Assembly (NCBI RefSeq): GCF_900105255.1
Contig: NZ_LT629763.1
Location: forward strand, 496,001-560,000
Direction of reading: 5' to 3'
Source: Halopseudomonas sabulinigri
Lineage (GTDB): Bacteria > Pseudomonadota > Gammaproteobacteria > Pseudomonadales > Pseudomonadaceae
Length of the DNA stretch: 64,000 nucleotides
A program made the position numbers and the translations under genes. The number at the start of each line of letters is the position of its first letter. Position 1 is the stretch's first letter. Below, in pieces: positions 34,980 through 52,272 of this stretch. A model generated the notes under the pieces. That model was not told the DNA's origin. It saw only the letters and a program-made list of their open reading frames with translations, and did not search any database.

Positions 34980-35837
34980 TCAATCTTCCTCTTCTGCATC
35001 CCGCAAGCGTTCCTGCCGAGCGGCTTCCTCCTCCAGCACCGCCCGAATCTCTGCTACTACGCTGTCTACGTCAGCTTCTCCCTCGGGATCAGCAAAATGC
35101 CCGGTAAGCTCCGTTTCCGGTGTGAGCTTGCCTTCTTCGTACAAAGACCACATCTCGGCAGCATAACGACTGTCGAGCAGGTCGGGAGCGTACTGACCGT
35201 AATACTCGGTCATGTTGCGCACATCGCGGTCCAGCATCTTGCGCGCGTTGTTGTTGGCGGCGGCGTCCACGGCCTGCGGCAGGTCGATGATGACCGGGCC
35301 GTAGGCGTCCACCAGTACATTGAATTCGGAGAGATCGCCGTGTACCAGGCCGGCGCAAAGCATCAGTTTGACGTACTCCATGACCACGGCATGGTCCTCA
35401 CGTGCCTGTTCGGCCGACATGGAGACATCATTAAGGCGGGGGGCGACATCACCGTCATCATCGGTGACCAGTTCCATCAGCAGTACGCCGTCGAAGCAGC
35501 CATAGGGCGTAGGCACGCGGGCACCGATGGCAGCGAGGCGATAGAGCGCGTCTACTTCGGCATTCTGCCAAGCCGACTCCTGTTGGTCGCGACCGAATTT
35601 GGAGCCCTTTTCCATTGCGCGGGCGCGGCGTGAATTGCGCACCTTGCGGCCTTCCTGATAGAGCACGGCCTGTTTGAAACTGCGCTTGGCGGCTTCCTTG
35701 TAGACCTTGGCGCAGCGAATCTCATCCCCGCAGCGAACAACGAAGACGGCGGCTTCCTTGCCGCTCATCAGGGGACGTATGACCTCGTCGATGAGGCCGT
35801 CTTCTACCAGTGGTTGCAAACGCTTGGGGATCTTCAT
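34980..35837 (-). CDS. RIO1-like serine protein kinase
   Basis: 285 aa. RIO signature elements: SGKEAAVFVV (loop and lysine region), VHGDLSEFNVLV (catalytic loop, HGD..N) and VIIDLPQAVD (metal-binding D). The C-terminus is strongly acidic (EEEAARQERLRDAEEED). Bacterial RIO kinases are uncharacterised; archaeal and eukaryotic homologues act in ribosome maturation. ATG 35837 begins MKIPKRLQPLVEDGLIDEVI. Convergent with arfB. Confidence 0.92.
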   Translation of the reverse strand: MKIPKRLQPLVEDGLIDEVIRPLMSGKEAAVFVVRCGDEIRCAKVYKEAAKRSFKQAVLYQEGRKVRNSRRARAMEKGSKFGRDQQESAWQNAEVDALYRLAAIGARVPTPYGCFDGVLLMELVTDDDGDVAPRLNDVSMSAEQAREDHAVVMEYVKLMLCAGLVHGDLSEFNVLVDAYGPVIIDLPQAVDAAANNNARKMLDRDVRNMTEYYGQYAPDLLDSRYAAEMWSLYEEGKLTPETELTGHFADPEGEADVDSVVAEIRAVLEEEAARQERLRDAEEED

Positions 35838-38832: not shown

Positions 38833-39667
38833 GATTGGCCCGGGCAAGGTGTGTTTTTACCCTAGCGGGAATGTATGACAGTTGGATGATGGTTGTGTTG
38901 CTTGCTGAGCTAATGGATGGGGAACGCATTCAAATACATGGGTGACATGTGTTGAGCTGTATTTATTGCTGTTTACAGCGTATCTATTTGTTTTATCTGG
39001 TTATTGTGCTCTGGTGTTGTACGCCTTTCGCCTTGCCGGCGAGTCACTTTTCTTTGCTTGGCCATCGAGCCGTAACCAAAAGAAAGGTCGCGACCAGCTT
39101 GGGCCCCACCAAGCTGGCCTTCGGCTTCTCTGCGTTACTCGGTGCCGAGCGGCGCCGCGAAAACTCGCTTCGCTCAGACAACTCGCGACGCTTTATCGCT
39201 CGGCCCCTGCGTTACTCGACAGCTTGGATGGGGATAAACGGCCGGAGAAAGGCGTGATTTTCAGGTCTCGTGATTTGGTCTAAGTTTGAAAACCCCAAAT
39301 CAGCCGTTTGCAAGGACTAGAATATCCCATCTGAGCGGGCGAGTAGCGCAGAACTGACGGGAAAAAGGCGCTTGCGATGTCTGAGCGAAGCGAGTTTGCA
39401 AGCGTCCCCGGCAGGTCGAGCAACGCAGCGAACCCGAAGGGCCGCGCAGCTGGGTGCCCGGGGGGATTGCTAAGGGGGGTCGGGCAAACGGTCCCCCTTG
39501 GCTCGCCTAGAGGCGAAAACGGTAGTGAGCTAAACCCCGCAGCTCGAAGCTTGGGAAAAAATGCCAAACCACCACATCCTAGCCGTAGGGTGGGTGGCCA
39601 GAGCCACCCACCATGGCGAACAATCCTGCGGCGTTGTCCGCCTTACAAAACCGTTAGCACGGCTAAC
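38833..39667. other. Long intergenic region with inverted repeats, no gene
   Basis: About 830 bases. Reading frames here are short, low in typical coding character and mutually related on opposite strands because of the repeat pair at 39030-39560. I recognise no protein family, promoter or RNA gene. Confidence 0.6.
39030..39560. repeat. Two inverted copies of an interspersed repeat
   Basis: The left copy (about 39030-39245) and the reverse complement of the right copy (about 39300-39560) share order and sequence: CTGCGTTACTCG versus CTGCGTTGCTCG, then the exact 20-mer at 39161-39180 found inverted at 39378-39397. Both then continue through CTGCG(T/C)TACTCG and GATGGG. The arms are imperfect and spaced by about 80 bases. 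Confidence 0.75.
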
Positions 39668-40885
39668 TCAATCCACCAAAGCCCCATTGATGATCGCCCG
39701 CAACTCCTGCCGCACCGCATAGGTAGAAGATGGAATCAGCTGCGTCATAAAGATCATCAGCACATCCTCGACCGGGTCGATAAAGAAGTTGGTACTGGCC
39801 ATGCCTCCCCAACCGTATTCCCCCACCGAACCGTTAGTCTGCGACTTGGCCACATCGGTCTTGACCGAAAAGCCCAGGCCAAAGCCGGTGCCGTCATAGG
39901 GCGTTTCGCTGAAGGAGCCGATGGCCACGCCGGGCAGGTCCTGATTGCCCGGCAGGTGGTTCATGCGCATGAACTCCAGCGTTTTGCGGCCGATGATGCG
40001 AGCACCGTCCAGCTCGCCGCCGTTGGCCAGTGCCTGGGCGAAGCGGTAGTAGTCATCAATACAGGAAACCAGGCCGCCACCGCCGGACAAATAGCCGTGG
40101 GCTTTGGCAAAGGCCGAGTTCTGCGGGTCGTCCTGCAGGCTGAAGGTGTCGCCGGGTTGATATTGATAGCAGGCGGCGAAGCGATGAAGCTTGTCCTGTG
40201 GCACGGTGAAGAAGGTATCCGGCATGCCCAGTGGCTGGAAGATATGTTTGGCGAAGTACTCATCCAGGCTCAGGCCGGAGAGTACCTGGACCAGGTAGCC
40301 GCACACATCGGTGGCGACCGAGTAGCCCCAGGCGGTGCCTGGAGAAAACTCCAGCGGCAGGCGCGACAGTTCGTCGATCAACCTGTCCAGAGTATGACCA
40401 GGGCCGCCATCGAGTTTCAGGCTGCGGTAGGCAGCGTCGACGTTGGTTCGGTTCATAAAGCCGTAGGTCAGGCCCGATTGGTGGGTCAGCAAGTCGCGGA
40501 TGCTCATTGGGCGTTCGGGCGCGGTGGTCAGCATCTGCGGGTGGCTGCCGGTCTTGTAGACGCGCAGGTCTTTCCAGGCGGGGATGTATTTGTGCACCGG
40601 CTCATCAAGCAGAAAGCGACCCTGTTCGTACAACTGCATCAGCGCAATCGAGGTGATGGGCTTGGTCATGGAGTAAATGCGGAACAGGGTGTCGCGCTCC
40701 ACGGCCAGCCCGCGCTCCACGTCGCGCAGGCCCTGCGCCTTCAGCCAGGTGATTTCGCCGCGACGGGCGACCAGCGTCAAAGTGCCGGGCAGCTTGCCGG
40801 GTTCAAGGTAGGCGCGTTGCAGGTGGTCGCCAATGCGATCCAGACGGGTAACGTCCATTCCGGCGATGCAGGTGCTCTGTTCCAT
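39668..40885 (-). CDS. Class C beta-lactamase-fold serine hydrolase (esterase-like)
   Basis: 405 aa, no signal peptide. The SxxK catalytic box is [15 protein letters not shown]; the second-box tyrosine is in [17 protein letters not shown]; the third box is poorly defined. This pattern is usual for EstB-type esterases and D-aminopeptidase-like hydrolases, not true antibiotic-resistance enzymes, which are exported. ATG 40885 begins [20 protein letters not shown]. It probably hydrolyses small esters or amides in the cytoplasm. Confidence 0.88.
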
Positions 40886-41088
40886 GGGAAATTCCGGTTA
40901 TTGATCAATGACTTGATAGTAGCCTGTCTGCGTTGCCAACAGAAACCCCCGAGAGCCGCGAATGACGCATCATGCAGCGCTCTGATGCGGCTAGAAAAAT
41001 AGTTGTTTATGGCCGCTGAAATCCGTTGTTAAGCGCCCTGAATTCGGTGTAAAAAGCCGCACCGAAGCAAAATGAGGGTTGCGATGAA

Positions 41089-41472: not shown

Positions 41473-42642
41473 TCACGCAGCAGCTGCCTCGGCCGGCTGG
41501 CCGGCGCTGGCGACCACTGAGTGCACCAGGTACAGCTTGCGCATGCTGTCCACCGTCAGCACGAAGGGATAGATATCCTGCTGGCCCATGCTGCGGGCCA
41601 GTACGTTGAGCACACTGCTCAGCTGCACCCAACGGTTAACAAAGGCAAGAAAGCGCTGACGGTCATCCTCGCCGTGTTCCAGTGCGGCCAGCTGGCTGCT
41701 GTCGAACGGGTCGGTTTGCAGTGTCAGGGTGTCGAGCTGCAGGCCGAAGTCCAGTGCGGCATTCAGGGTATCGGTCATGTGCAGATAGTGCGCCCAGGTC
41801 TCGGCCCAGTCTTCCCAGGGGTGGGTGGCGGCGTAGCTGCTGATGAAGTGATCTTTCCAGTTGGCTGGCGGGCCATCGTTGTAATGGCGCTTGAGGGCTT
41901 CCTGATAGTCCTGCCGATCATCGCCAAACAGGGCGCGGCAGGGTTCCAGCCAATGGGTGTCGCGTACCAGTCGATCCCAGTAGTAATGGCCGCTCTCGTG
42001 ACGAAAATGGCCCAGCATGGTGCGGTAGGGCTCATGCATATTGACGCGCATGCGCTCCCGGTGGGCAGGGTCGGCTTCATCAATGTTCAGCGTGATCATG
42101 CCGTTCATGTGGCCGGTCATGACCGGGTCTTCGCCAGGTTGCTGGCGCAGAAAGTCGAAGCCTAGGCCCTGCTCCGGATCAACACTGCGAGGAATGACCG
42201 GCAACCCCAGCATTAATAACTGGGCGACCAGACGGCGTTTGGCGACCTCGGTTTCGTGCCAGAGGCGGGCGTTTTCGTCCAGGCTCAGGTCCGGGATGGT
42301 CTCGTTCAGCGCGCAGGCAAGGCAAAAGGGTGAGCTGGTGTCGCCGGTTACCAGCCAGTTGCAGGCAGCCGGCGCCGTCAAGTTCTGACAGCGGCGATAA
42401 TGGCGCCTGGGCTGCTCGGTATCGGCCTGTAGATGCCAGCAACCCTCTTCACTGGCGGCTTCCAGGCTGAACAAGCTGCCTTTCAATGGGTGGTAACCCA
42501 GCTCTGCCCCGCAGCGCAGACACTGGGTGTTGTTGAAGAACACCGCCTGGCCACACTGACAGCGCTGTACCTGACCGGTTGCCTGGTAGTCGAACAGCTG
42601 CTGGCCTTCGGTCGCACGGACCAACTGATCAAAATAACTCAT
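41473..42642 (-). CDS. Zinc-binding metallopeptidase (COG4307-like)
   Basis: 389 aa. An N-terminal zinc ribbon (CQCGQAVFFNNTQCLRCG, residues about 28-45) is followed by a second cysteine group (CQNLTAPAACNW, FCLAC). The peptidase core has HFRHESGHYYWDRL, an HExxH-type site, and a downstream acidic WEDWAETWAHYLH. This family accompanies the alpha-E/ATP-grasp genes in other proteobacteria and is predicted to cleave their peptide product. Third gene of the minus-strand operon, 46 nt after the alpha-E gene. Confidence 0.88.
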   Translation of the reverse strand: MSYFDQLVRATEGQQLFDYQATGQVQRCQCGQAVFFNNTQCLRCGAELGYHPLKGSLFSLEAASEEGCWHLQADTEQPRRHYRRCQNLTAPAACNWLVTGDTSSPFCLACALNETIPDLSLDENARLWHETEVAKRRLVAQLLMLGLPVIPRSVDPEQGLGFDFLRQQPGEDPVMTGHMNGMITLNIDEADPAHRERMRVNMHEPYRTMLGHFRHESGHYYWDRLVRDTHWLEPCRALFGDDRQDYQEALKRHYNDGPPANWKDHFISSYAATHPWEDWAETWAHYLHMTDTLNAALDFGLQLDTLTLQTDPFDSSQLAALEHGEDDRQRFLAFVNRWVQLSSVLNVLARSMGQQDIYPFVLTVDSMRKLYLVHSVVASAGQPAEAAAA

Positions 42643-42688: not shown

Positions 42689-43660
42689 TTAAGATTGCGA
42701 TTGCGACTGAGTCTGCGCGCTTTCTTCCGGTTGCGCAAAGTAGGTCTGGCGAATGGCGTCATGCAGCTCGTCGAAGTCGACCTGAATCTCGTCGACAAAG
42801 GCGTGCAGGCGATCCGGCTCGGCGGCGAGCACCGCAATTTCTGCTTTGGCCAGATCCTGCCGGCAGGTTTCTACTTCGCTCAATGCGGCTTCATGCCGAG
42901 GCAATGTCAGCAACGCATTGGCCAGGCGCTCCAGCGCACAGGCCACGCTGCGCGGGAACAGCTGATCCTGCAGCAGAAACTGCAGCACGTCCGGCCCGCG
43001 GATGCGCAAACGCACATGCTGGCGGTACATCTGATAGCCGCTGAGCGACTTGAGCACACTCATCCACTGCAAGGTCTCGAACGGCGTGAGATCCTCAGGT
43101 GTGCGCGGCAACAGGTTGGCCGAGCGCACATCAAGTACGCGGGTGGTCATGTCGGCCCGTTCCAGTTGACGACCGAGCATCAGGAAGGAGCGCACCTGCG
43201 TGTAGCTTAGGGTGCTTTCAATCAGCCCGTTGACTGTTTGACAGCTGCGGATCACTCGGCCAAGGAAGGCGTCGCGCCGGCGCGGGGTAATGCCCGAGCC
43301 CACCTGTTCCTTGACGTTCAGATACATCTGGTTGACCTCTTCCCAGATCTCGCGGGGGATCACATCGCGGGTGGTACGCAGGTTCTCGCGGGCAGCGCTC
43401 AGCGAACTGAGAATGGAGCCGGGATATCGCCGGTCACCGCACATGAAGGTCAGCACGCTGGCTTCATCGCGAGTGGGGTAATGCTCGTCAAACAGTTCGT
43501 CGTTGCCGGTGATGGCGATGATTTCCGACCACCCCAGTTCAGTGGTGCGTGGCAAGTCGAGCAACAGGTGGCTGTTGACGCTCAGTAGGCGCGCGGTATC
43601 TTCGGCGCGTTCGAGGTAGCGGGCCAGCCAGTACACATTTTCGGCTACACGTGAAAGCAT
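42689..43660 (-). CDS. Alpha-E domain protein (COG2307)
   Basis: 323 aa, all helical. It starts MLSRVAENVYWLARYLERAE, the alpha-E signature with E-D pairs; conserved SVLKSLSGYQMYRQ and FLLLGRQLERADMTTRVLD-like blocks follow (here FLMLGRQLERADMTTR). The domain is always paired or fused with the circularly permuted ATP-grasp. The C-terminal 20 residues are Q/S/E-rich. It starts 3 nt after the ATP-grasp stop, so translation is coupled. Confidence 0.93.
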   Translation of the reverse strand: MLSRVAENVYWLARYLERAEDTARLLSVNSHLLLDLPRTTELGWSEIIAITGNDELFDEHYPTRDEASVLTFMCGDRRYPGSILSSLSAARENLRTTRDVIPREIWEEVNQMYLNVKEQVGSGITPRRRDAFLGRVIRSCQTVNGLIESTLSYTQVRSFLMLGRQLERADMTTRVLDVRSANLLPRTPEDLTPFETLQWMSVLKSLSGYQMYRQHVRLRIRGPDVLQFLLQDQLFPRSVACALERLANALLTLPRHEAALSEVETCRQDLAKAEIAVLAAEPDRLHAFVDEIQVDFDELHDAIRQTYFAQPEESAQTQSQSQS

Positions 43661-43663
43661 GAT

Positions 43664-45118
43664 TCAGTTCCCCGCCATGTCTACGATCCAGGTGTCTTTA
43701 CTACCGCCGCCCTGTGACGAATTGACGACAAGTGAGCCCTTGGTCAGTGCCACCCGGGTTAGCCCGCCGGTGGTGACCCAGTTGCTCTCGCCGGACAGGA
43801 TAAAGGGCCGCAGATCCACGTGGCGAGGTTCCATTTCCTTGCCGCAAAGGGTGGGAGAGGTCGATAGGCTGAGCGTTGGCTGGGCCATGTAGTTGCGCGG
43901 GTCGGCCTTGATCAGTTCGGCAAACTTGGCGCGCTCCTTGTTGCTGGCGTGCGGGCCGATCAACATGCCGTAACCGCCGGACTCATTTGCCGGTTTGACC
44001 ACCAGTTTGTCGAGGTTATCGAGGACGTACTTACGGTCTTCTTCGAACATGCACAGGTAGCTGGGCACGTTGGGCAATAGCGGCTGCTCACCCAGATAGT
44101 ACTCGATGATCTTCGGCACAAAGGCGTAGACCACCTTGTCATCCGCCACGCCGGCACCCGGCGCGTTCGCCAGCGCGACGTTGCCCTTGCGCCAGGCCCG
44201 CATCAGCCCGCGAACGCCGAGCATGGAGTCGGGATTGAATACCTCGGGATCAATGAACATATCGTCCACGCGGCGGTAGATAACGTCTACCCGTTTCAGA
44301 CCATCGATCAGACGCATGTACACGCAGTCATCATCGCCCACTACCAGGTCCGGACCTTCTACCAGTTGCACGCCCATCTGCGCGGCCAGGTAGGAGTGCT
44401 CGTAATAGGCTGAGTTGTAGATGCCGGGAGTAAGAATGACGATGTTCGGGTCGTCGCCTGGCCGTGGCGATAGCGAGGCCAGCATGTCGTATAGCTGAGA
44501 GGTGTAGTCATCAACAGGTTGAATGCGGCCGCTGGCGAACAGGTCCGGCAATACCCGTTTGGTAACGTTGCGGTTCTCCAGCATGTAGGAGACGCCGGAG
44601 GGAACCCGCAGGTTGTCCTCAAGAACATAGAGGGTACCGTCGTTGTCACGCACCAGGTCTGAGCCGCAGATATGCGCCCAGACGTTATGCGGGGTAGAAA
44701 TGCCGACACACTGCGGACGAAAGTTGACCGACTGGGCAAGCACTTCAGCAGGGAATATACCGTCCTTGACGATCTTCTGGTCGTGGTAGAGATCATCGAT
44801 GAACATGTTCAGCGCCTGCACGCGCTGCTTCAGGCCGGCGTCGGTCTTCTGCCATTCACTGAGGGGGATGATGCGCGGCACTATGTCGAACGGCCAGGCG
44901 CGGTCGATCATGTTGCCTTCGGTATAAACGGTAAAGGTGATGCCCATCAGCTGGATGGCCACCTCGGCCGCAGTCTTGTGCTCGGCCAGTTCGCGCGCAT
45001 CGAGGTTGGCGAGGTACTGGCACAGCAGGTTGGCTTCCTGCCTCGGCTGTCCTGGTGCCTTGATGAGTTCGTCGTAAAAGCCCTTGGATAGGTAATTTTC
45101 CCAGTTTACTTTGCTCAT
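43664..45118 (-). CDS. Circularly permuted ATP-grasp ligase (COG2308)
   Basis: 484 aa. Nucleotide-binding elements are present: LVVKPANESGGYGM with the lysine and glycine loop, and the C-terminal NSSQGGGSKDTWIVD, both typical of this family. Predicted to form amide bonds between amino acids or onto a peptide using ATP. First gene of the minus-strand operon (ligase, alpha-E, peptidase), divergent from the transglutaminase operon with a 258-nt gap that should hold both promoters. Compare the fused homologue at 48770, where these motifs are gone. Confidence 0.94.
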   Translation of the reverse strand: MSKVNWENYLSKGFYDELIKAPGQPRQEANLLCQYLANLDARELAEHKTAAEVAIQLMGITFTVYTEGNMIDRAWPFDIVPRIIPLSEWQKTDAGLKQRVQALNMFIDDLYHDQKIVKDGIFPAEVLAQSVNFRPQCVGISTPHNVWAHICGSDLVRDNDGTLYVLEDNLRVPSGVSYMLENRNVTKRVLPDLFASGRIQPVDDYTSQLYDMLASLSPRPGDDPNIVILTPGIYNSAYYEHSYLAAQMGVQLVEGPDLVVGDDDCVYMRLIDGLKRVDVIYRRVDDMFIDPEVFNPDSMLGVRGLMRAWRKGNVALANAPGAGVADDKVVYAFVPKIIEYYLGEQPLLPNVPSYLCMFEEDRKYVLDNLDKLVVKPANESGGYGMLIGPHASNKERAKFAELIKADPRNYMAQPTLSLSTSPTLCGKEMEPRHVDLRPFILSGESNWVTTGGLTRVALTKGSLVVNSSQGGGSKDTWIVDMAGN

Positions 45119-45376
45119 TCAGCTACTCTGTCCGCTAGGGGGAGGGATGGCAGATCTGCTGCAATTGCCATACCAGATAACACCGGGTGAATGTTTGGCT
45201 CACCTCGTCTGACGGTGGCCAGGTTGTGGTGATGAGTTACTGCTGTACTGGCTAGTGTCACATTAGCGTGTTAAGAAATCAGGTGCGTAATAGGCTTGTA
45301 TCATCCAAGGTGTTGGCATAGCCATTGCTTTGCTCTGGTAACGCATCTGCCGACCATATAACCGGGATCATCCAGC

Positions 45377-48300
45377 ATGACTATCCGTGTAGCACTCAGG
45401 CACTCCACGCACTACGACTTTGATCGTCCGGTCACTGTCGCACCTCATCAAATCCGCCTCAAGCCGGCGCCGCACTGCCGCACGCCAATTGATGCCTACA
45501 GCCTCAAGGTTAGCGGAGGCGAGTACTTTATCAATTGGCAGCAGGATCCTTTTGGCAATCATATTGCTCGACTGGTGTTTCCGGAGAAGATGGAAAAGCT
45601 GCACATAGACGTGGAAGTGGTCGCGCCGATGACGGTGATCAACCCCTTCGACTTCTTTGTCGAGGAGTACGCGGAAACCTTCCCCTTCGAGTACAGCAAA
45701 GAGCTGAAGCGGGAGCTGGCTCCCTATCTGGATGCAGAAAAGCCGGGGCCTCTGCTGCACAAGTGGCTTGAGGGCGTTACCAGTAAAGAGATGACTGTGA
45801 GCGACTTTCTGGTCGAGATAAACCAGCGGTTGTCGCAGGATATTGCTTATCTCATTCGTATGGAGCCGGGTGTTCAGGCGGCGGAAGAGACGCTGGCGCT
45901 CAAACGCGGCTCTTGCCGCGATTCGGCCTGGTTGCTGGTGCAGATTTTGCGCAATCTGGGTCTTGCCGCACGCTTTGTATCGGGTTACCTGATCCAGCTG
46001 ACGGCGGATGTAAAAGCGCTGGACGGCCCCTCGGGTACGGATGTCGACTTTACCGACCTGCACGCCTGGACCGAGGTATTTCTGCCGGGCGCAGGCTGGG
46101 TCGGGCTTGACCCTACCTCGGGGCTGTTTGCCGGCGAAGGGCATTTGCCTCTGGCCGCTACGCCTGAGCCCAGCAGCGCCGCGCCCATTACCGGGGCAAC
46201 CGGCAAGTGCGAAGTTACCTTTGATTTTCATATGAGCGTCACCAGGGTGCACGAAGACCCGCGCGTGACCCTGCCGTACAGTGACGAGCAGTGGCAGGAA
46301 ATCAATGCGCTCGGCGCCATCGTGGATGCGCGTTTGGACGAGCAGGATGTGCGTTTGACCATGGGTGGCGAGCCCACCTTCGTCTCGATTGACGATATGG
46401 ATGCACCAGAATGGACCATCGCTGCGCAGGGGCCGACCAAAAGGGGGCTTTCCGAAGCGCTATTACGGCGCCTGCGCCCGCATTATGCACCGCACTCGCT
46501 GATCCATTATCAGCAAGGCAAGTGGTATCCGGGTGAACCACTACCGCGCTGGGCGCTGGCCTGCTATTGGCGCCGTGACGGTAAGCCGATGTGGCAGGAC
46601 GATCAGTGGCTGGCCGACATGGAGAAAGATTACGGTTACGGCGATGCCGAGGCGCAGCTGTTTGCCGAGACCCTGGTCAAGCGGCTGGGCCTGTCTGCGC
46701 AGTACCTGATCCCGTGCTATGAAGATGCCTATTACTACCTGTGGATCGAGCAAACACTGCCGGCGGACGTCGATCTGACCAAAGCCGATCTCAAGGACGA
46801 TGAAACTCGCCGTCGTCTGGCGCGTCTGCTGGAGCGTGGCCTGGATGAGATTACCGGTTTCGCGCTGCCATTGGCGGCCGGCAAGGCGAAGAATGTCTGG
46901 CAGACCGGCGAATGGCCGCTGCGCCGCGAGCATCTTTATCTGATACCGGGCGATTCGCCCATGGGCTTGCGGCTGCCGCTATCGGCATTACCGGAGAAGA
47001 AGCGTGAGGAGCCACAGGCTGCCTCGCTGTTTGAGCCGGCCACGGAGCTGACCGACATCCATGGTGAGGTCGCGCGATTATACAGCGCCTCCCAGCAGCC
47101 AAACGCCGGCGCCGGGCAAGGCAGCCATCACATGGCTGCCGGTCAGGAATGGCAGGAACAGATTCCGACGCTGCAGGAGGAGGGCATCATCGGTACCGCG
47201 CTGTGCATCGAGCCGCGCGACGGCAAGCTGTTTATCTTTATGCCGCCGCTGACCCAGCTCGAGAGCTATCTGTCGCTGTTGGCCAGCCTGGAGCAGACGG
47301 CTGCCGAGCTGAAGATGCCACTGTGCATTGAGGGTTATGCGCCACCGTCGGATACGCGTATCGAAAAATTCATGATCACGCCGGACCCGGGGGTGATCGA
47401 AGTCAACGTGATGCCGGCGGGCAACTGGCCGGAGCTGGTGAAAAACACCGAAATTCTGTACGAAGAAGCGCGGCTCACGCGCCTGGGCACCGAGAAATTC
47501 ATGCTCGATGGCCGGCACACCGGCACCGGCGGGGGCAACCACGTGACCCTGGGTGGCCGCACGCCGTCGGAGTCGCCGTTCCTGCGCCGCCCGGACCTGC
47601 TGGCCAGCATGCTGACCTTCTGGCAACACCATCCGAGCCTTTCCTACCTGTTCTCCGGCATGTTCCTGGGCCCGACCAGCCAGGCGCCGCGGATTGACGA
47701 GGCACGGCACGAGGCGCTCTACGAACTGGAAATTGCCCTGGCGCAAATGCCCAAGGGTGAAGTGCCGCAGCCCTGGCTGGTGGATCGGCTGGTGCGTAAC
47801 CTGCTGACCGACATTACCGGCAATACCCACCGCGCCGAGTTCTGCGTCGATAAGATGTACTCGCCAGACAGTGCCACCGGACGTTTGGGCTTACTGGAGC
47901 TGCGCGGGTTTGAAATGCCGCCGCATGCGCGCATGAGCCTCATGCAGCAGTTGCTGATCCGCGCGCTGGTCGCGCGCTTCTACGCCGAGCCATACCGCCA
48001 GCCGTTGGCGCGCTGGGGAACCGCACTGCATGATAAGTGGATGATGCCGCACTATATCTGGCGCGATCTCTGCGATGTGCTGGCAGATCTGCGTGCGCAT
48101 GGTTTTGCCTTCAAGGATGAATGGTTTGCGCCTTTCCTGGAGTTCCGCTTCCCGCACGCGGGCGAGGTGCAGTATGGCGATGTACGAATCGAGTTGCGTC
48201 AGGCGATAGAGCCCTGGCACGTGCTGGGCGAGGAGGTGAGCGGCGGCGGTACTGCTCGCTACGTTGATTCGTCTGTCGAGCGTATGGAAGTCAAGGTAAG

Positions 48301-48709
48301 GGATTTCAACGCCGCGCGGTACACCCTGACCTGCAACGGTTACAAGGTGCCGCTGCAACCCACGGGTGTCAGCGGCGAAGCCGTTGCGGCGGTGCGTTTC
48401 AGAGCCTGGCAGCCACCCTCGGCGCTGCACCCGATGATCACCATTCAAGCGCCGCTGGTGTTTGATCTGGTGGATAATTGGAATCAGCGCTCGGTTGGCG
48501 GTTGTACCTATCACGTAGTGCATCCCGGTGGGCGTGGTTACGAAACCTTCCCGGTCAACGCGAACGAAGCCGAGGCGCGGCGCATGACTCGTTTCTGGGA
48601 TTATGGCCATACGCAAGGCTCGATGGCCGATGTGCGCCAGGCCGCGGGACAGGAATATCCGCATACCCTGGATTTGCGGCGTGCCGCAGTAGCCAGCCGT
48701 GGTTTATAA
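45377..48709 (+). CDS. Transglutaminase-like protein fused to DUF2126
   Basis: 1110 aa. Residues 1-290 form a bacterial transglutaminase-like domain with triad C180 (RGSCRDS), H229 (DLHAWTEVF) and D245 (GLDPTSG). The rest is the large DUF2126 region (about 300-1100) with TMGGEPTFVSIDDMD, an amidoligase/GS-like fold as others have predicted, including EVNVMPAGNW and GRHTGTGGGNHVTLGG. No signal peptide. The first gene of the plus operon; a stop-to-start gap of 60 nt leads to the fusion protein. Probable role: making or cleaving an isopeptide product. Confidence 0.93.
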   Translation: MTIRVALRHSTHYDFDRPVTVAPHQIRLKPAPHCRTPIDAYSLKVSGGEYFINWQQDPFGNHIARLVFPEKMEKLHIDVEVVAPMTVINPFDFFVEEYAETFPFEYSKELKRELAPYLDAEKPGPLLHKWLEGVTSKEMTVSDFLVEINQRLSQDIAYLIRMEPGVQAAEETLALKRGSCRDSAWLLVQILRNLGLAARFVSGYLIQLTADVKALDGPSGTDVDFTDLHAWTEVFLPGAGWVGLDPTSGLFAGEGHLPLAATPEPSSAAPITGATGKCEVTFDFHMSVTRVHEDPRVTLPYSDEQWQEINALGAIVDARLDEQDVRLTMGGEPTFVSIDDMDAPEWTIAAQGPTKRGLSEALLRRLRPHYAPHSLIHYQQGKWYPGEPLPRWALACYWRRDGKPMWQDDQWLADMEKDYGYGDAEAQLFAETLVKRLGLSAQYLIPCYEDAYYYLWIEQTLPADVDLTKADLKDDETRRRLARLLERGLDEITGFALPLAAGKAKNVWQTGEWPLRREHLYLIPGDSPMGLRLPLSALPEKKREEPQAASLFEPATELTDIHGEVARLYSASQQPNAGAGQGSHHMAAGQEWQEQIPTLQEEGIIGTALCIEPRDGKLFIFMPPLTQLESYLSLLASLEQTAAELKMPLCIEGYAPPSDTRIEKFMITPDPGVIEVNVMPAGNWPELVKNTEILYEEARLTRLGTEKFMLDGRHTGTGGGNHVTLGGRTPSESPFLRRPDLLASMLTFWQHHPSLSYLFSGMFLGPTSQAPRIDEARHEALYELEIALAQMPKGEVPQPWLVDRLVRNLLTDITGNTHRAEFCVDKMYSPDSATGRLGLLELRGFEMPPHARMSLMQQLLIRALVARFYAEPYRQPLARWGTALHDKWMMPHYIWRDLCDVLADLRAHGFAFKDEWFAPFLEFRFPHAGEVQYGDVRIELRQAIEPWHVLGEEVSGGGTARYVDSSVERMEVKVRDFNAARYTLTCNGYKVPLQPTGVSGEAVAAVRFRAWQPPSALHPMITIQAPLVFDLVDNWNQRSVGGCTYHVVHPGGRGYETFPVNANEAEARRMTRFWDYGHTQGSMADVRQAAGQEYPHTLDLRRAAVASRGL

Positions 48710-48769: not shown

Positions 48770-51358
48770 ATGCAACAGGCAGGTAACGCCGTCTCTCCGC
48801 TTAAAACGCTGCTGGGGGACTATCCCGGTCATACCGGCCATGACGAGCTCCTGGATGCCGATCAGCAGCCGCGCGCCCATTGGCAGGGCCTGCTGGACGA
48901 TATTGCCAGGTTGGGCACCGATACTCTGGTCAGCCGCAGCGAAGAAGTTCAGAACCTGCTGCACGAGAATGGCGTCACCTTCAATCCCTATGAAGACGAT
49001 CCGGGTCAGCTGCGCTCCTGGCAGCTTGATTGCGTGCCCTGGGTCATCAGTACCGAGGAGTGGGAAACACTGGAGGCTGGGCTGCGCCAGCGCAGCCGCC
49101 TGCTGGAACACCTGCTGGACGATCTGTACGGCGCGCGCCGGGTTTTTCAGGAGGGCCTGCTGCCCCCCGAGCTGATTTTTACTCACCCCGGTTTTCTGTT
49201 CTCCGCTGCTGATGATCCGCAGCAGGTTGATCGCCCGCTATTGATCTTCCACGGCACCGATGTCATCCGCGATGAGCGCGGTGGCTGGCAGGTGCTGAGT
49301 GACTGGACGCAGTCGCCGGCAGGGGTGGGTTACGCGCTGGAAAATCGCATTACGCTGGCGCGCGCCTTGCCCAGTATCTACCGCGATGCCCCGATCAAGC
49401 GCCTAGCCGGCTTTTTACAGGCGCAGCACCGCTGTCTGGCCAGTCTGGCCAAGACCCAGCGTGAGCAGCCCAATATCGTACTGCTGTCGCCTGGCCCCGG
49501 CAGCCCCGGTTACTTCGAGCATGCCTGGCTGGCCAACTACATGAACTTCTCGTTGGTCGAAGGCGATGATCTGGTGGTGCGTGACGGCCAGGTTGCCATG
49601 CGCACCTTGGGCGGCCTGACCCAGGTCGATGTGATTCTGCGCCAGATCAACGACCCCTGGTGCGACCCGCTTGAGCTAAGGCCCGATTCGCTACTGGGCG
49701 TGCCGGGCCTGCTGCAGGCGGCGCGCTGTGGCAATGTCCATATCGCCAATGCGCTGGGCGCCGGCATTCTTGAGCATCCGGGCCTGTCAGCCTTTCTGCC
49801 CGATCTGTGCCGTGCACTACTGGGCGAAGAGCTGCTGCTGCCGTGCCGCGAAACGCTCTGGTGCGGTTCTGCTGACAGCTTGTCGCAGGTGGACGATGAG
49901 CTGGATGAGTGGGTCCTGCGTGATATTAGCCGTCCAGGCAAGCTCTATCGTGCAGACCAGATGGGCTTGGATGCGTTGCGCGATCTGCGCACCCAGCTGC
50001 GTCACCATCCCTATCTGTTTACTGCGCAGCGGCAGATCGCTGGCGGTGTAACGCCGGGTTTCAATACTCAGACCCGGAGCCTGGAGCGCCAACAGACTAC
50101 CCTGCGGTTCTTCAGCCTGGTCGAGCCGGATGACCTGCTCAAGCCGGTGAATGAACGCAACTACCGCGTTATGCCCGGCGGCCTGGCGTGGCAGGGGGAG
50201 GCAGGCGCCCCCCTGATGAAGAGCCGCCTGGTAAAGGACGTCTGGGTGCTGGCGCCAGTGCCGCAGCCGCATATCAGCTTGTTGCGTCAGGCGCAGGGCC
50301 CCATCGTGGTAACCCGCGATGGCAAGGACCTGCCGTGCCGAGTGGCAGAAAGCCTGTTCTGGCTGGGGCGTTACGGCGAGCGACTGGATACCCGCGGTCG
50401 CTTACTCCGTGAGTCGCTTGCCAGACTGCTGCAGGATGAACGGCAGGAAGGCGGCTCTACCTTGATGCCCGACCTGCTGCGCGCGCTGGAAATACCTCTC
50501 GATGAGGAAATAAAAAACCCCGAGGCACCGGTCGCTGCCGGGCGCGTTTCCCGTGAATACATACTCACCCGCGACCGCCTGTTGCAAATGTTTTCTGATG
50601 ATCTGCCGGAAGGCTTGCCAGTGCTGTTTGGGCATTTTGTACGCAACAGCCGTGCAGTGCGAGACCACCTGGGCGACGACACCTGGCGTGCCATCAATAG
50701 CTTACGCCAGCAGTTCAACAGTATGTCGCGCACGCGCGGCGTGGTGGTGGGGCAGCGCCACCTTGAAGCAATGGTGCTCGACCTGGCGGCGTTCTTTGGT
50801 CTGTGCAACGAGACCATGCCACATCACTATGGCTGGCGTTTTCTCGATATAGGTCGGTTTATCGAGCGTATGCTGGGATCGCTGGAGCTGCTCAAGCTTG
50901 CTTTGCTCACTGCCGAGGAACCGGGCATTCCGTTATGGGAGGTGGTGTTGGCGACCACCGACAACCTCACCGTGTATCGCCGTCGCTACCGTTCACAGCT
51001 GCACCCGCTGGCGATTCTTGATCTGCTGCTGTTTGATGAAACCAATCCGCGTTCGATCGGTTACATGCTTAAACGCCTGGACAGACAAATCGCCAAACTG
51101 CCCTCGCCGGGCAGCTCGCCGTACCGCAATACCGAGCAGCGCCTGGTTATCCAGGCGACCAGCACGCTGCATCTGGTCGATATTGCTACACTCGCCGACC
51201 TGGAAGGCTCTGCCGATGCCAGAGAGGCGCTGAGCAATCTGCTGGATCAATTGATCGAACCCATGTCCGAGTTGTCGAACGCGCTCTCGCACAGTCATTT
51301 CAGCCACGTTGAAGCACCGCGTCAGCTGGTAAGCATGCATTTCAGTGGGCAACCCTGA
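48770..51358 (+). CDS. ATP-grasp/alpha-E fusion protein with degenerate ligase site
   Basis: 862 aa. Residues 1-500 align with the stand-alone ligase at 43664 (LIFHGTDVIRDERGGWQVLS, PNIVLLSPGPGSPGYFEHAW, LVEGDDLVV). At the nucleotide loop, however, it reads DEWVLRDISRPGKLY in place of VVKPANESGGYG, and the C-terminal SQGGGSKDTW motif is replaced by LMKSRLVKDVWVL. Residues about 515-862 are an alpha-E domain (VAESLFWLGRYGERLDTRGR). The ligase half is probably inactive and structural or regulatory. Middle gene of the operon, 11 nt before the second transglutaminase. Confidence 0.93.
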   Translation: MQQAGNAVSPLKTLLGDYPGHTGHDELLDADQQPRAHWQGLLDDIARLGTDTLVSRSEEVQNLLHENGVTFNPYEDDPGQLRSWQLDCVPWVISTEEWETLEAGLRQRSRLLEHLLDDLYGARRVFQEGLLPPELIFTHPGFLFSAADDPQQVDRPLLIFHGTDVIRDERGGWQVLSDWTQSPAGVGYALENRITLARALPSIYRDAPIKRLAGFLQAQHRCLASLAKTQREQPNIVLLSPGPGSPGYFEHAWLANYMNFSLVEGDDLVVRDGQVAMRTLGGLTQVDVILRQINDPWCDPLELRPDSLLGVPGLLQAARCGNVHIANALGAGILEHPGLSAFLPDLCRALLGEELLLPCRETLWCGSADSLSQVDDELDEWVLRDISRPGKLYRADQMGLDALRDLRTQLRHHPYLFTAQRQIAGGVTPGFNTQTRSLERQQTTLRFFSLVEPDDLLKPVNERNYRVMPGGLAWQGEAGAPLMKSRLVKDVWVLAPVPQPHISLLRQAQGPIVVTRDGKDLPCRVAESLFWLGRYGERLDTRGRLLRESLARLLQDERQEGGSTLMPDLLRALEIPLDEEIKNPEAPVAAGRVSREYILTRDRLLQMFSDDLPEGLPVLFGHFVRNSRAVRDHLGDDTWRAINSLRQQFNSMSRTRGVVVGQRHLEAMVLDLAAFFGLCNETMPHHYGWRFLDIGRFIERMLGSLELLKLALLTAEEPGIPLWEVVLATTDNLTVYRRRYRSQLHPLAILDLLLFDETNPRSIGYMLKRLDRQIAKLPSPGSSPYRNTEQRLVIQATSTLHLVDIATLADLEGSADAREALSNLLDQLIEPMSELSNALSHSHFSHVEAPRQLVSMHFSGQP

Positions 51359-51369
51359 CCGAGGCCGTG

Positions 51370-52272
51370 ATGAAATACCAGCTACGCCATACTACCCATT
51401 ACGAATACAGCGGCGCGGTCACGCTGAGCCACAACGAGGCGCGTATTCTGCCGCGTAACCTGCCGTGGCAGGACTGTACCGAGACCCAACTGGTGATATC
51501 ACCGACACCGGACCGCCTGCGTGAGCGCACGGACTTTTTCGGCAACCGGGTGGTGTATTTCTCCATTGAGTCTTTGCACGACAGCCTAGATGTAACCGTC
51601 AGCAGCAATGTGATCACGCGCCCGCGGCTGGCTGCCGATTTCTTCAGCAGTATTGGTTGGGAGGCTGCTGCTGGGGAGTTGCAGCAGGACCCACGCAAAA
51701 CCAACCGCGATTGTCTGGAAGCACGTTTGTATGTGCTCAGCTCGCCGTTCATCTTTCAGCACAGCCGACTCGCGGAGTACGCGCGCGATTGCTTCACGCC
51801 GGGGCGCAACCTGGTTGATGCGGTGCTGCAACTGAACAGCAAAATCTTCAACGAGTTTATCTACGACCCCGAGTTCACGACGGTCGCTACGCCCCTGGCT
51901 GATGTGCTCGCCAGTAAGCGCGGGGTTTGCCAGGACTTTGCCCACTTGATTATTGGCTGCCTGCGCTCCCTTGGCTTGGCGGCGCGCTACATCAGTGGCT
52001 ATATGGAAACCTTGCCACCGCCCGGTGAAGTGAAGTTGCTGGGCGCCGACGCTACCCACGCCTGGGCTGCGGTATTCATTCCGGGCTGGGGCTGGCTGGA
52101 GATAGACCCCACCAACGGCTGCATGCCCGATGAGCGCTACATTGTGCTCGGCTGGGGCCGCGACTTCGCCGATGTGACGCCACTCAAAGGCGTGATGACC
52201 GGCGGCGGCGACCACGTGCTCAGCGTGGCAGTGGATGTAATTCCCCTGCGTGAGGAAGCGTCGCTGCTTTAG
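51370..52272 (+). CDS. Second transglutaminase-like protein
   Basis: 300 aa. Triad C185 (RGVCQDFAHL), H228 (THAWAAVF) and D244 (EIDPTNG), at nearly the same spacing as in the 1110-aa protein. Begins MKYQLRHTTHYEYSGAVTLS, the usual beta-rich N-terminal domain. ATG 51370 fits GAGG; a GTG directly before it is possible. Last gene of the plus-strand operon. Cytoplasmic; predicted peptidase or amide-forming enzyme acting on the cluster's product. Confidence 0.93.
   Translation: MKYQLRHTTHYEYSGAVTLSHNEARILPRNLPWQDCTETQLVISPTPDRLRERTDFFGNRVVYFSIESLHDSLDVTVSSNVITRPRLAADFFSSIGWEAAAGELQQDPRKTNRDCLEARLYVLSSPFIFQHSRLAEYARDCFTPGRNLVDAVLQLNSKIFNEFIYDPEFTTVATPLADVLASKRGVCQDFAHLIIGCLRSLGLAARYISGYMETLPPPGEVKLLGADATHAWAAVFIPGWGWLEIDPTNGCMPDERYIVLGWGRDFADVTPLKGVMTGGGDHVLSVAVDVIPLREEASLL

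What the first reader, a model, noticed from the sequence alone, without database searches (positions are those of the whole stretch)
48770..51358. ATP-grasp half of the fusion protein appears catalytically dead while its stand-alone paralogue is intact
The stand-alone ligase has VVKPANESGGYG and SQGGGSKDTW. At the equivalent places the fusion reads DEWVLRDISRPGKLY and LMKSRLVKDVWVL, without the lysine-proline-glycine loop or the glycine-rich motif. The same operon pair therefore pairs an active-looking enzyme with a pseudo-enzyme, suggesting a regulatory or scaffold partner.
Basis: seen in the sequence. Interest (0 to 1): 0.6.

Follow-up and report, generated by a model that had tools for sequence, protein, structure and literature searches.

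The report
Dead ATP-grasp paralogue fused to Alpha-E
In a nitrogen-regulated bacterial gene cluster thought to build or attach peptides, one of two sister ligase proteins has lost the parts needed to use ATP, and it has been kept that way across the whole phylum, so it probably works as a helper subunit and not as an enzyme.

Summary
Confirmed and extended. The protein at 48770-51358 is a circularly permuted ATP-grasp domain (PF14403) fused to Alpha-E (PF04168). I mapped five Mg/ATP residues from E. coli glutathionylspermidine synthetase. The stand-alone paralogue (43664-45118, minus strand) and 116 of 116 homologues keep all five. The fusion keeps one (D164); E, N and both lysines became S177, W179, P337 and R384. 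None of 162 fusions across Pseudomonadota keeps more than two, and none keeps the Asn. Fusions and stand-alones lie on the two sides of one fully supported branch, so the loss is ancient and a family trait. Halomonas-type fusions have also deleted 59 residues carrying the ATP loop. The fold, Alpha-E half and purifying selection remain (dN/dS 0.02-0.08), and the old pocket has its own near-invariant residues (Q181, G187, E335), so it is not a decaying gene. Fusions co-occur with a GS-fold amidoligase (DUF2126) in 110 of about 122 genomes. Best reading: a non-catalytic adaptor subunit of a nitrogen-controlled amidoligase/transglutaminase system. The partner and ligand are inferred, not shown.

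The parts
48770..51358 (+). Fusion protein, 862 aa: pseudo ATP-grasp (res 90-473) plus Alpha-E (res 521-844)
   Evidence: ORF; Pfam PF14403 1e-118, PF04168 1e-60; model md54114776508 pLDDT 79, best PDB match 3n6x Z 36.6
49259..49261 (+). D164, the only retained Mg/ATP residue (EcGspS D318)
49298..49312 (+). Former metal site: S177 (was E167), W179 (was N169), Q181 (was R171; Q in 148 of 162 fusions)
49772..49780 (+). E335-H-P337: SA D326-D-K328, ATP-phosphate lysine (EcGspS K498) replaced by Pro
49919..49951 (+). R384-Y394: replaces K375-xxxx-SGGYG, lysine plus glycine loop lost (EcGspS K533 loop)
49835..50023 (+). Region equivalent to the 59 residues (within about 356-418) deleted from Halomonas/Vreelandella fusions; fastest evolving part of the window-type ATP-grasp half
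   Evidence: entropy 2.03 vs 0.98 in the core; deletion in L052, L054, L064, L073; 16 of 162 fusions lack the stretch
50219..50245 (+). KSRLVKDVW in place of QGGGSKDTW
50330..51301 (+). Alpha-E half with hallmark residues kept (R524, W531, R534, E537, R538, R544, R700, R737, P760, R761)
43664..45118 (-). Stand-alone CP ATP-grasp, 484 aa, all five Mg/ATP residues kept
   Evidence: (3n6x 1e-156)
43967..43996 (-). Stand-alone K375-PANESGGYG lysine/glycine loop
44612..44620 (-). Stand-alone E167-D-N169 metal motif
42689..43660 (-). Stand-alone Alpha-E, 323 aa
   Evidence: PF04168 3.5e-87
45377..48709 (+). Transglutaminase fused to DUF2126 (GS-fold amidoligase), 1110 aa
   Evidence: PF09899 1335 bits, PF01841; Cys/His/Asp triad pattern kept in 113 of 115
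51367..52272 (+). Transglutaminase, 301 aa, directly downstream of the fusion
   Evidence: triad pattern kept in 162 of 163
45314..45329 (+). Sigma-54-like -24/-12 TGGCATAGCCATTGCT upstream of the + unit
   Evidence: exact consensus match, conserved in all 11 aligned spacers
45160..45175 (-). Sigma-54-like -24/-12 TGGTATGGCAATTGCA upstream of the - unit
   Evidence: one mismatch, conserved across relatives

Best explanation
The fusion is an ancient pseudo-amidoligase. SHOWN by sequence comparison: a circularly permuted ATP-grasp domain of the stand-alone type lost its Mg-binding E-x-N and an ATP lysine before the fusion clade spread through Pseudomonadota; the window's lineage also lost the second lysine and the glycine loop, and the Halomonas group deleted the loop region. 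The fold, Alpha-E half and a rewired, conserved pocket were kept under strong purifying selection. It occurs only beside an intact ATP-grasp gene in the same genome (one incomplete genome apart) and nearly always with a transglutaminase-DUF2126 amidoligase. INFERRED: it no longer binds or hydrolyses ATP productively. It serves as a non-catalytic adaptor that holds substrate or partner proteins for the DUF2126 amidoligase and transglutaminase encoded next to it, while the stand-alone ATP-grasp does the ATP-dependent step. The set is switched on together under nitrogen limitation by sigma-54.
For: Residue mapping: the best local alignment of stand-alone to EcGspS pairs D154, E167, N169 with D318, E330, N332, and the fusion profile aligns P337 and R384 near K498 and K533. 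The homologous TryS residues D330, E344, N346, K513 and K548 contact Mg/ATP in a modelled complex (PMC3581523). 116 of 116 stand-alones keep all five; 162 fusions keep at most two. Fusion and stand-alone lie on two sides of one branch, support 100, length 1.06. 59-residue deletion in Halomonas-type fusions, still under purifying selection (dN/dS 0.03-0.08). Window fusion dN/dS 0.02-0.08, core slower than the loop lobe. Near-invariant fusion-specific residues Q181, G187, E302, E335. Alpha-E hallmarks kept. Model matches 3n6x Z 36.6, rmsd 4.0, 437 residues. Genomic: fusion and DUF2126 together in 110 of about 122, Fisher p 3e-33, and fusion without a second PF14403 only in one 74% complete genome. 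Order AE-SA / TGD-FUS-TG kept in most of 77 loci. Back-to-back sigma-54-like sites are the main conserved islands of the spacer. In Burkholderia the ATP-grasp/Alpha-E/transglutaminase genes are NtrC/sigma-54 activated (PMC5491218). The stand-alone homologue of Yersinia releases Pi from ATP and is a large multimer (PMC6376114).
Against: No binding, activity or interaction was measured. The Yersinia Anbu-operon pull-down found no specific partners, though that operon was described as four genes without a fusion. About 12 genomes have the fusion without detected DUF2126 and 10 the reverse, so the pairing is not absolute. The hhalign match to EcGspS is statistically weak (probability under 1%); the mapping rests on motif spacing plus the structural match. 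D164, R291 and R446 persist, so some ligand may still bind. Co-occurrence does not correct for shared ancestry.
Confidence: 0.5

Rival explanations
1. The fusion is an allosteric or heteromeric partner of the stand-alone ATP-grasp itself, as pseudo-kinase FAM20A activates FAM20C (analogy from memory): it co-assembles through the shared fold and tunes the active subunit.
For: Fusion found essentially only where an intact stand-alone exists; shared divergent sigma-54-like control; the Yersinia stand-alone forms a roughly 14-mer.
Against: About 93 genomes have a single PF14403 gene, nearly always the stand-alone type, so it does not generally need the fusion; the fusion tracks DUF2126 more closely; about 30% identity between the two leaves interface conservation untested.
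Confidence: 0.25
2. The old ATP pocket was rebuilt for another ligand or another reaction: the fusion-specific near-invariant Q181, G187, E335 with kept D164, R193, D267, D299, N327, R446 form a new site.
For: Those residues are 91-100% conserved over 162 divergent fusions, unlike simple decay.
Against: No known motif matches; Halomonas-type fusions lost part of the cleft and survive; the residues may serve folding.
Confidence: 0.13
3. The fusion still binds or uses ATP through other residues.
For: D164 and two arginines persist; a minority of fusions keep K375 and QRGGASKDTW.
Against: Both Mg ligands E and N and the K328 lysine are gone in nearly all; the glycine loop is shortened here and absent in Halomonas-type fusions.
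Confidence: 0.07
4. A decaying relic with no function in its ATP-grasp half.
For: The loop lobe evolves about twice as fast as the core and was deleted once.
Against: dN/dS 0.02-0.08, near-invariant clade-specific residues, intact frame in over 150 fusions.
Confidence: 0.02

Closest known systems
COG2308 / CP_ATPgrasp_2 (PF14403), structure 3n6x
   Same: Same fold and family; 396.9 bits to Pfam; structure match Z 36.6 at 30% identity
   Different: Lacks the E-x-N metal motif, both ATP lysines and the glycine loop; fused to Alpha-E
COG2308-Alpha-E-transglutaminase-Anbu peptide-modification system (Iyer et al. 2009, known here only through PMC5666114 and PMC6376114)
   Same: ATP-grasp, Alpha-E and transglutaminase genes side by side; nitrogen-starvation link
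   Different: No Anbu in the cluster, a Peptidase_Mx metallopeptidase gene lies downstream instead; second, dead ATP-grasp-Alpha-E fusion and DUF2126 present
Glutathionylspermidine / trypanothione synthetase
   Same: Same circularly permuted ATP-grasp fold and residue grammar in the stand-alone
   Different: The fusion lacks the grammar; no amidase domain
TTLL12, an ATP-grasp (TTL-like) protein reported not to catalyse tubulin tyrosine ligation (PMC3520985)
   Same: Non-ligating ATP-grasp-type fold fused to another domain
   Different: Eukaryotic, unrelated partner domain; analogy only

Membership tests
COG2308 / CP_ATPgrasp_2 (by homology) | Profile score over the curated cut-off and same fold | tested here: met
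   396.9 bits vs 32; 3n6x Z 36.6
Active ATP-grasp ligase (by function) | Mg-binding D, E-x-N | tested here: not met
   D kept, E to S, N to W
Active ATP-grasp ligase (by function) | Two ATP-phosphate lysines and glycine-rich loop | tested here: not met
   K328 to P337, K375 to R384, SGGYG absent
Active ATP-grasp ligase (by function) | Binds and hydrolyses ATP | not testable with these tools
   needs purified protein
Alpha-E family | Profile match and conserved ER motif | tested here: met
   206 bits; E537 R538 in 57 and 59 of 59
Pseudoenzyme under selection | Catalytic residues lost, fold kept, purifying selection | tested here: met
Anbu-type peptide-tagging operon | Anbu gene adjacent to ATP-grasp, Alpha-E and transglutaminase | tested here: not met
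   No Anbu-like gene in the cluster; the whole genome has one proteasome-fold gene, elsewhere, its type not resolved
Sigma-54 regulated unit | Conserved -24/-12 elements upstream of both units | tested here: met
   no expression data for this organism

The most novel reading that the evidence does not exclude
A phylum-wide family of pseudo ATP-grasp proteins whose former nucleotide pocket was rebuilt into a new conserved site that feeds or senses substrate for a DUF2126 amidoligase/transglutaminase machine under nitrogen control: an obligate non-catalytic subunit of an uncharacterised bacterial peptide-modification pathway.
Probability: 0.3. Interest if true: 0.7.

Novelty: new variant of a known kind. 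Interest (0 to 1): 0.5.

Why it matters
Public annotation names such fusions 'circularly permuted type 2 ATP-grasp protein', which suggests a second ligase that the residues deny. Counting one ATP-using ATP-grasp ligase, one pseudo-ligase and one GS-fold amidoligase gives the pathway a definite and testable architecture, and the sigma-54/NtrC link gives a growth condition in which to test it.

Tried and rejected
Iyer et al. 2009 (PMC3268129) is not held, so whether it already noted an inactive fusion could not be checked. AlphaFold of the stand-alone failed (pLDDT 39, shallow alignment) and was not used; 3n6x stands in for it. hhalign of tool alignments to single-sequence EcGspS gave nothing; with broader profiles the best local alignment matched the metal motif but with low probability. 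Searches for papers on an inactive COG2308 or on DUF2126 found none. A Bacteroidota hit (Hymenobacter plasmid) was a stand-alone, not a fusion. 'Decaying gene', 'frameshift' and 'chance' were rejected.

Full report
OBSERVATION. The ORF 48770-51358 (862 aa) is a CP_ATPgrasp_2 domain (residues 90-473) followed by Alpha-E (521-844); the stand-alone 43664-45118 on the minus strand is CP_ATPgrasp_2 alone. These are the only two PF14403 genes of the genome. The quoted motifs are right. The stand-alone is a close relative of the solved protein 3n6x (1e-156); the fusion also matches 3n6x, but its phmmer alignment stops before the C-terminal motif.

RESIDUES. In TryS, D330, E344 and N346 bind the two Mg ions and K513 and K548 the ATP phosphates in a modelled complex (PMC3581523). 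The EcGspS equivalents are D318, E330, N332, K498 and K533 (position numbers read off the E. coli gene; the equivalence is from family knowledge). The best local alignment of the stand-alone profile to EcGspS pairs [24 protein letters not shown] with MDFCMDERG-LKVYEYNADSASCH, which puts D154, E167 and N169 on the Mg ligands; the lysines K328 and K375 are assigned by motif. The statistical score of that alignment is weak, so the mapping rests on motif spacing and the structural match. All 116 stand-alones keep all five. The window fusion has D164, S177, W179, P337, R384. Of 162 fusions, 122 keep one, 29 two, 11 none; the Asn is never kept, the Glu in two. Residues of the general fold such as W98, Q107, G185, R193, D267, D299, N327 and R446 are 98-100% kept.

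HISTORY. A tree of 71 fusions and 31 stand-alones puts the two kinds on opposite sides of one branch (support 100, length 1.06; three long end branches are of unsure place). Since stand-alones and EcGspS share the residues, the active state is ancestral (inference). Some fusions still carry K and QRGGASKDTW, the window lineage does not, and Halomonas/Vreelandella fusions have deleted 59 residues including the lysine loop. This is stepwise erosion after the first loss. The loop lobe is the least conserved part of the window-type ATP-grasp half (entropy 2.03 versus 0.98 in the core).

NOT DECAY. dN/dS of the fusion is 0.02-0.08 in close pairs (synonymous sites are near saturation in several pairs), and 0.03-0.08 even in the shortened Halomonas form. 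Q181, G187, E302 and E335 are fusion-specific and 91-99% conserved. The Alpha-E half keeps its hallmark residues. A model (pLDDT 79, pTM 0.60) matches 3n6x with Z 36.6, rmsd 4.0 over 437 residues, then glutathione-synthetase-type enzymes.

CONTEXT. In most of 77 loci the order is Alpha-E, stand-alone, then divergently TGase-DUF2126, fusion, TGase. In an Enterobacter roggenkampii plasmid all five run in one direction. In 398 Pseudomonadota genomes the fusion is in about 122, DUF2126 in 120, both in 110; about 93 genomes have a single PF14403 gene, and only one of them, 74% complete, holds the fusion. These counts were compiled by hand from lists that are cut at the weak end, so weak fusions may be missed, and shared ancestry is not corrected for. 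Both transglutaminases keep the Cys-His-Asp pattern.

REGULATION. The 258-bp spacer holds TGGCATAGCCATTGCT (+, exact to the pattern) and TGGTATGGCAATTGCA (-, one mismatch); they are the main conserved islands over 11 species and recur in most of 20 loci scanned. In Burkholderia cenocepacia the matching genes I35_5080-83 are NtrC/sigma-54 activated under nitrogen limitation (PMC5491218). So stand-alone and fusion are divergent units under a common kind of promoter, not one operon.

MECHANISM. Shown: ATP-site loss, retention of fold, selection, co-occurrence, shared promoter type. Inferred: loss of ATP use, adaptor role for the DUF2126/TGase module, nitrogen control in this organism. The stand-alone homologue of Yersinia releases Pi from ATP and is a large multimer, yet no partner was found for Anbu in that operon (PMC6376114). 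Rivals are given above. Iyer et al. 2009, which described the system, could not be read here, so priority for noting the dead fusion is open.

Noticed in passing
45160-45175 and 45314-45329: Back-to-back sigma-54-like promoters between the two units, conserved over many Gammaproteobacteria loci.
   Followed up: yes
L052, L054, L064, L073 (Halomonas/Vreelandella), equivalent to window 49835-50023: A 59-residue in-frame deletion removes the ATP-loop region of the pseudo ATP-grasp while the operon stays intact.
   Followed up: yes
41473-42642: Zinc-ribbon Peptidase_Mx metallopeptidase gene downstream of Alpha-E; Peptidase_Mx genes also lie close to the cluster in several related loci and may take the place of Anbu.
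   Followed up: partly
L200 (NZ_CP116251.1): All five genes in one row on an Enterobacter roggenkampii IncFII plasmid with an IS26-family transposase gene about 5 kb away, suggesting horizontal transfer.
   Followed up: partly
39377-41002: 541-aa ORF with no Pfam match near the cluster (not shown to be a gene).
   Followed up: no
34980-35837: Bacterial RIO1-type kinase gene.
   Followed up: no
genomes G024, G223, G229, G241, G329: One family (f45) has fusions without detected DUF2126; the two members in the tree (L168 from G241, L175 from G024) have R at the position where other fusions have Q181.
   Followed up: partly
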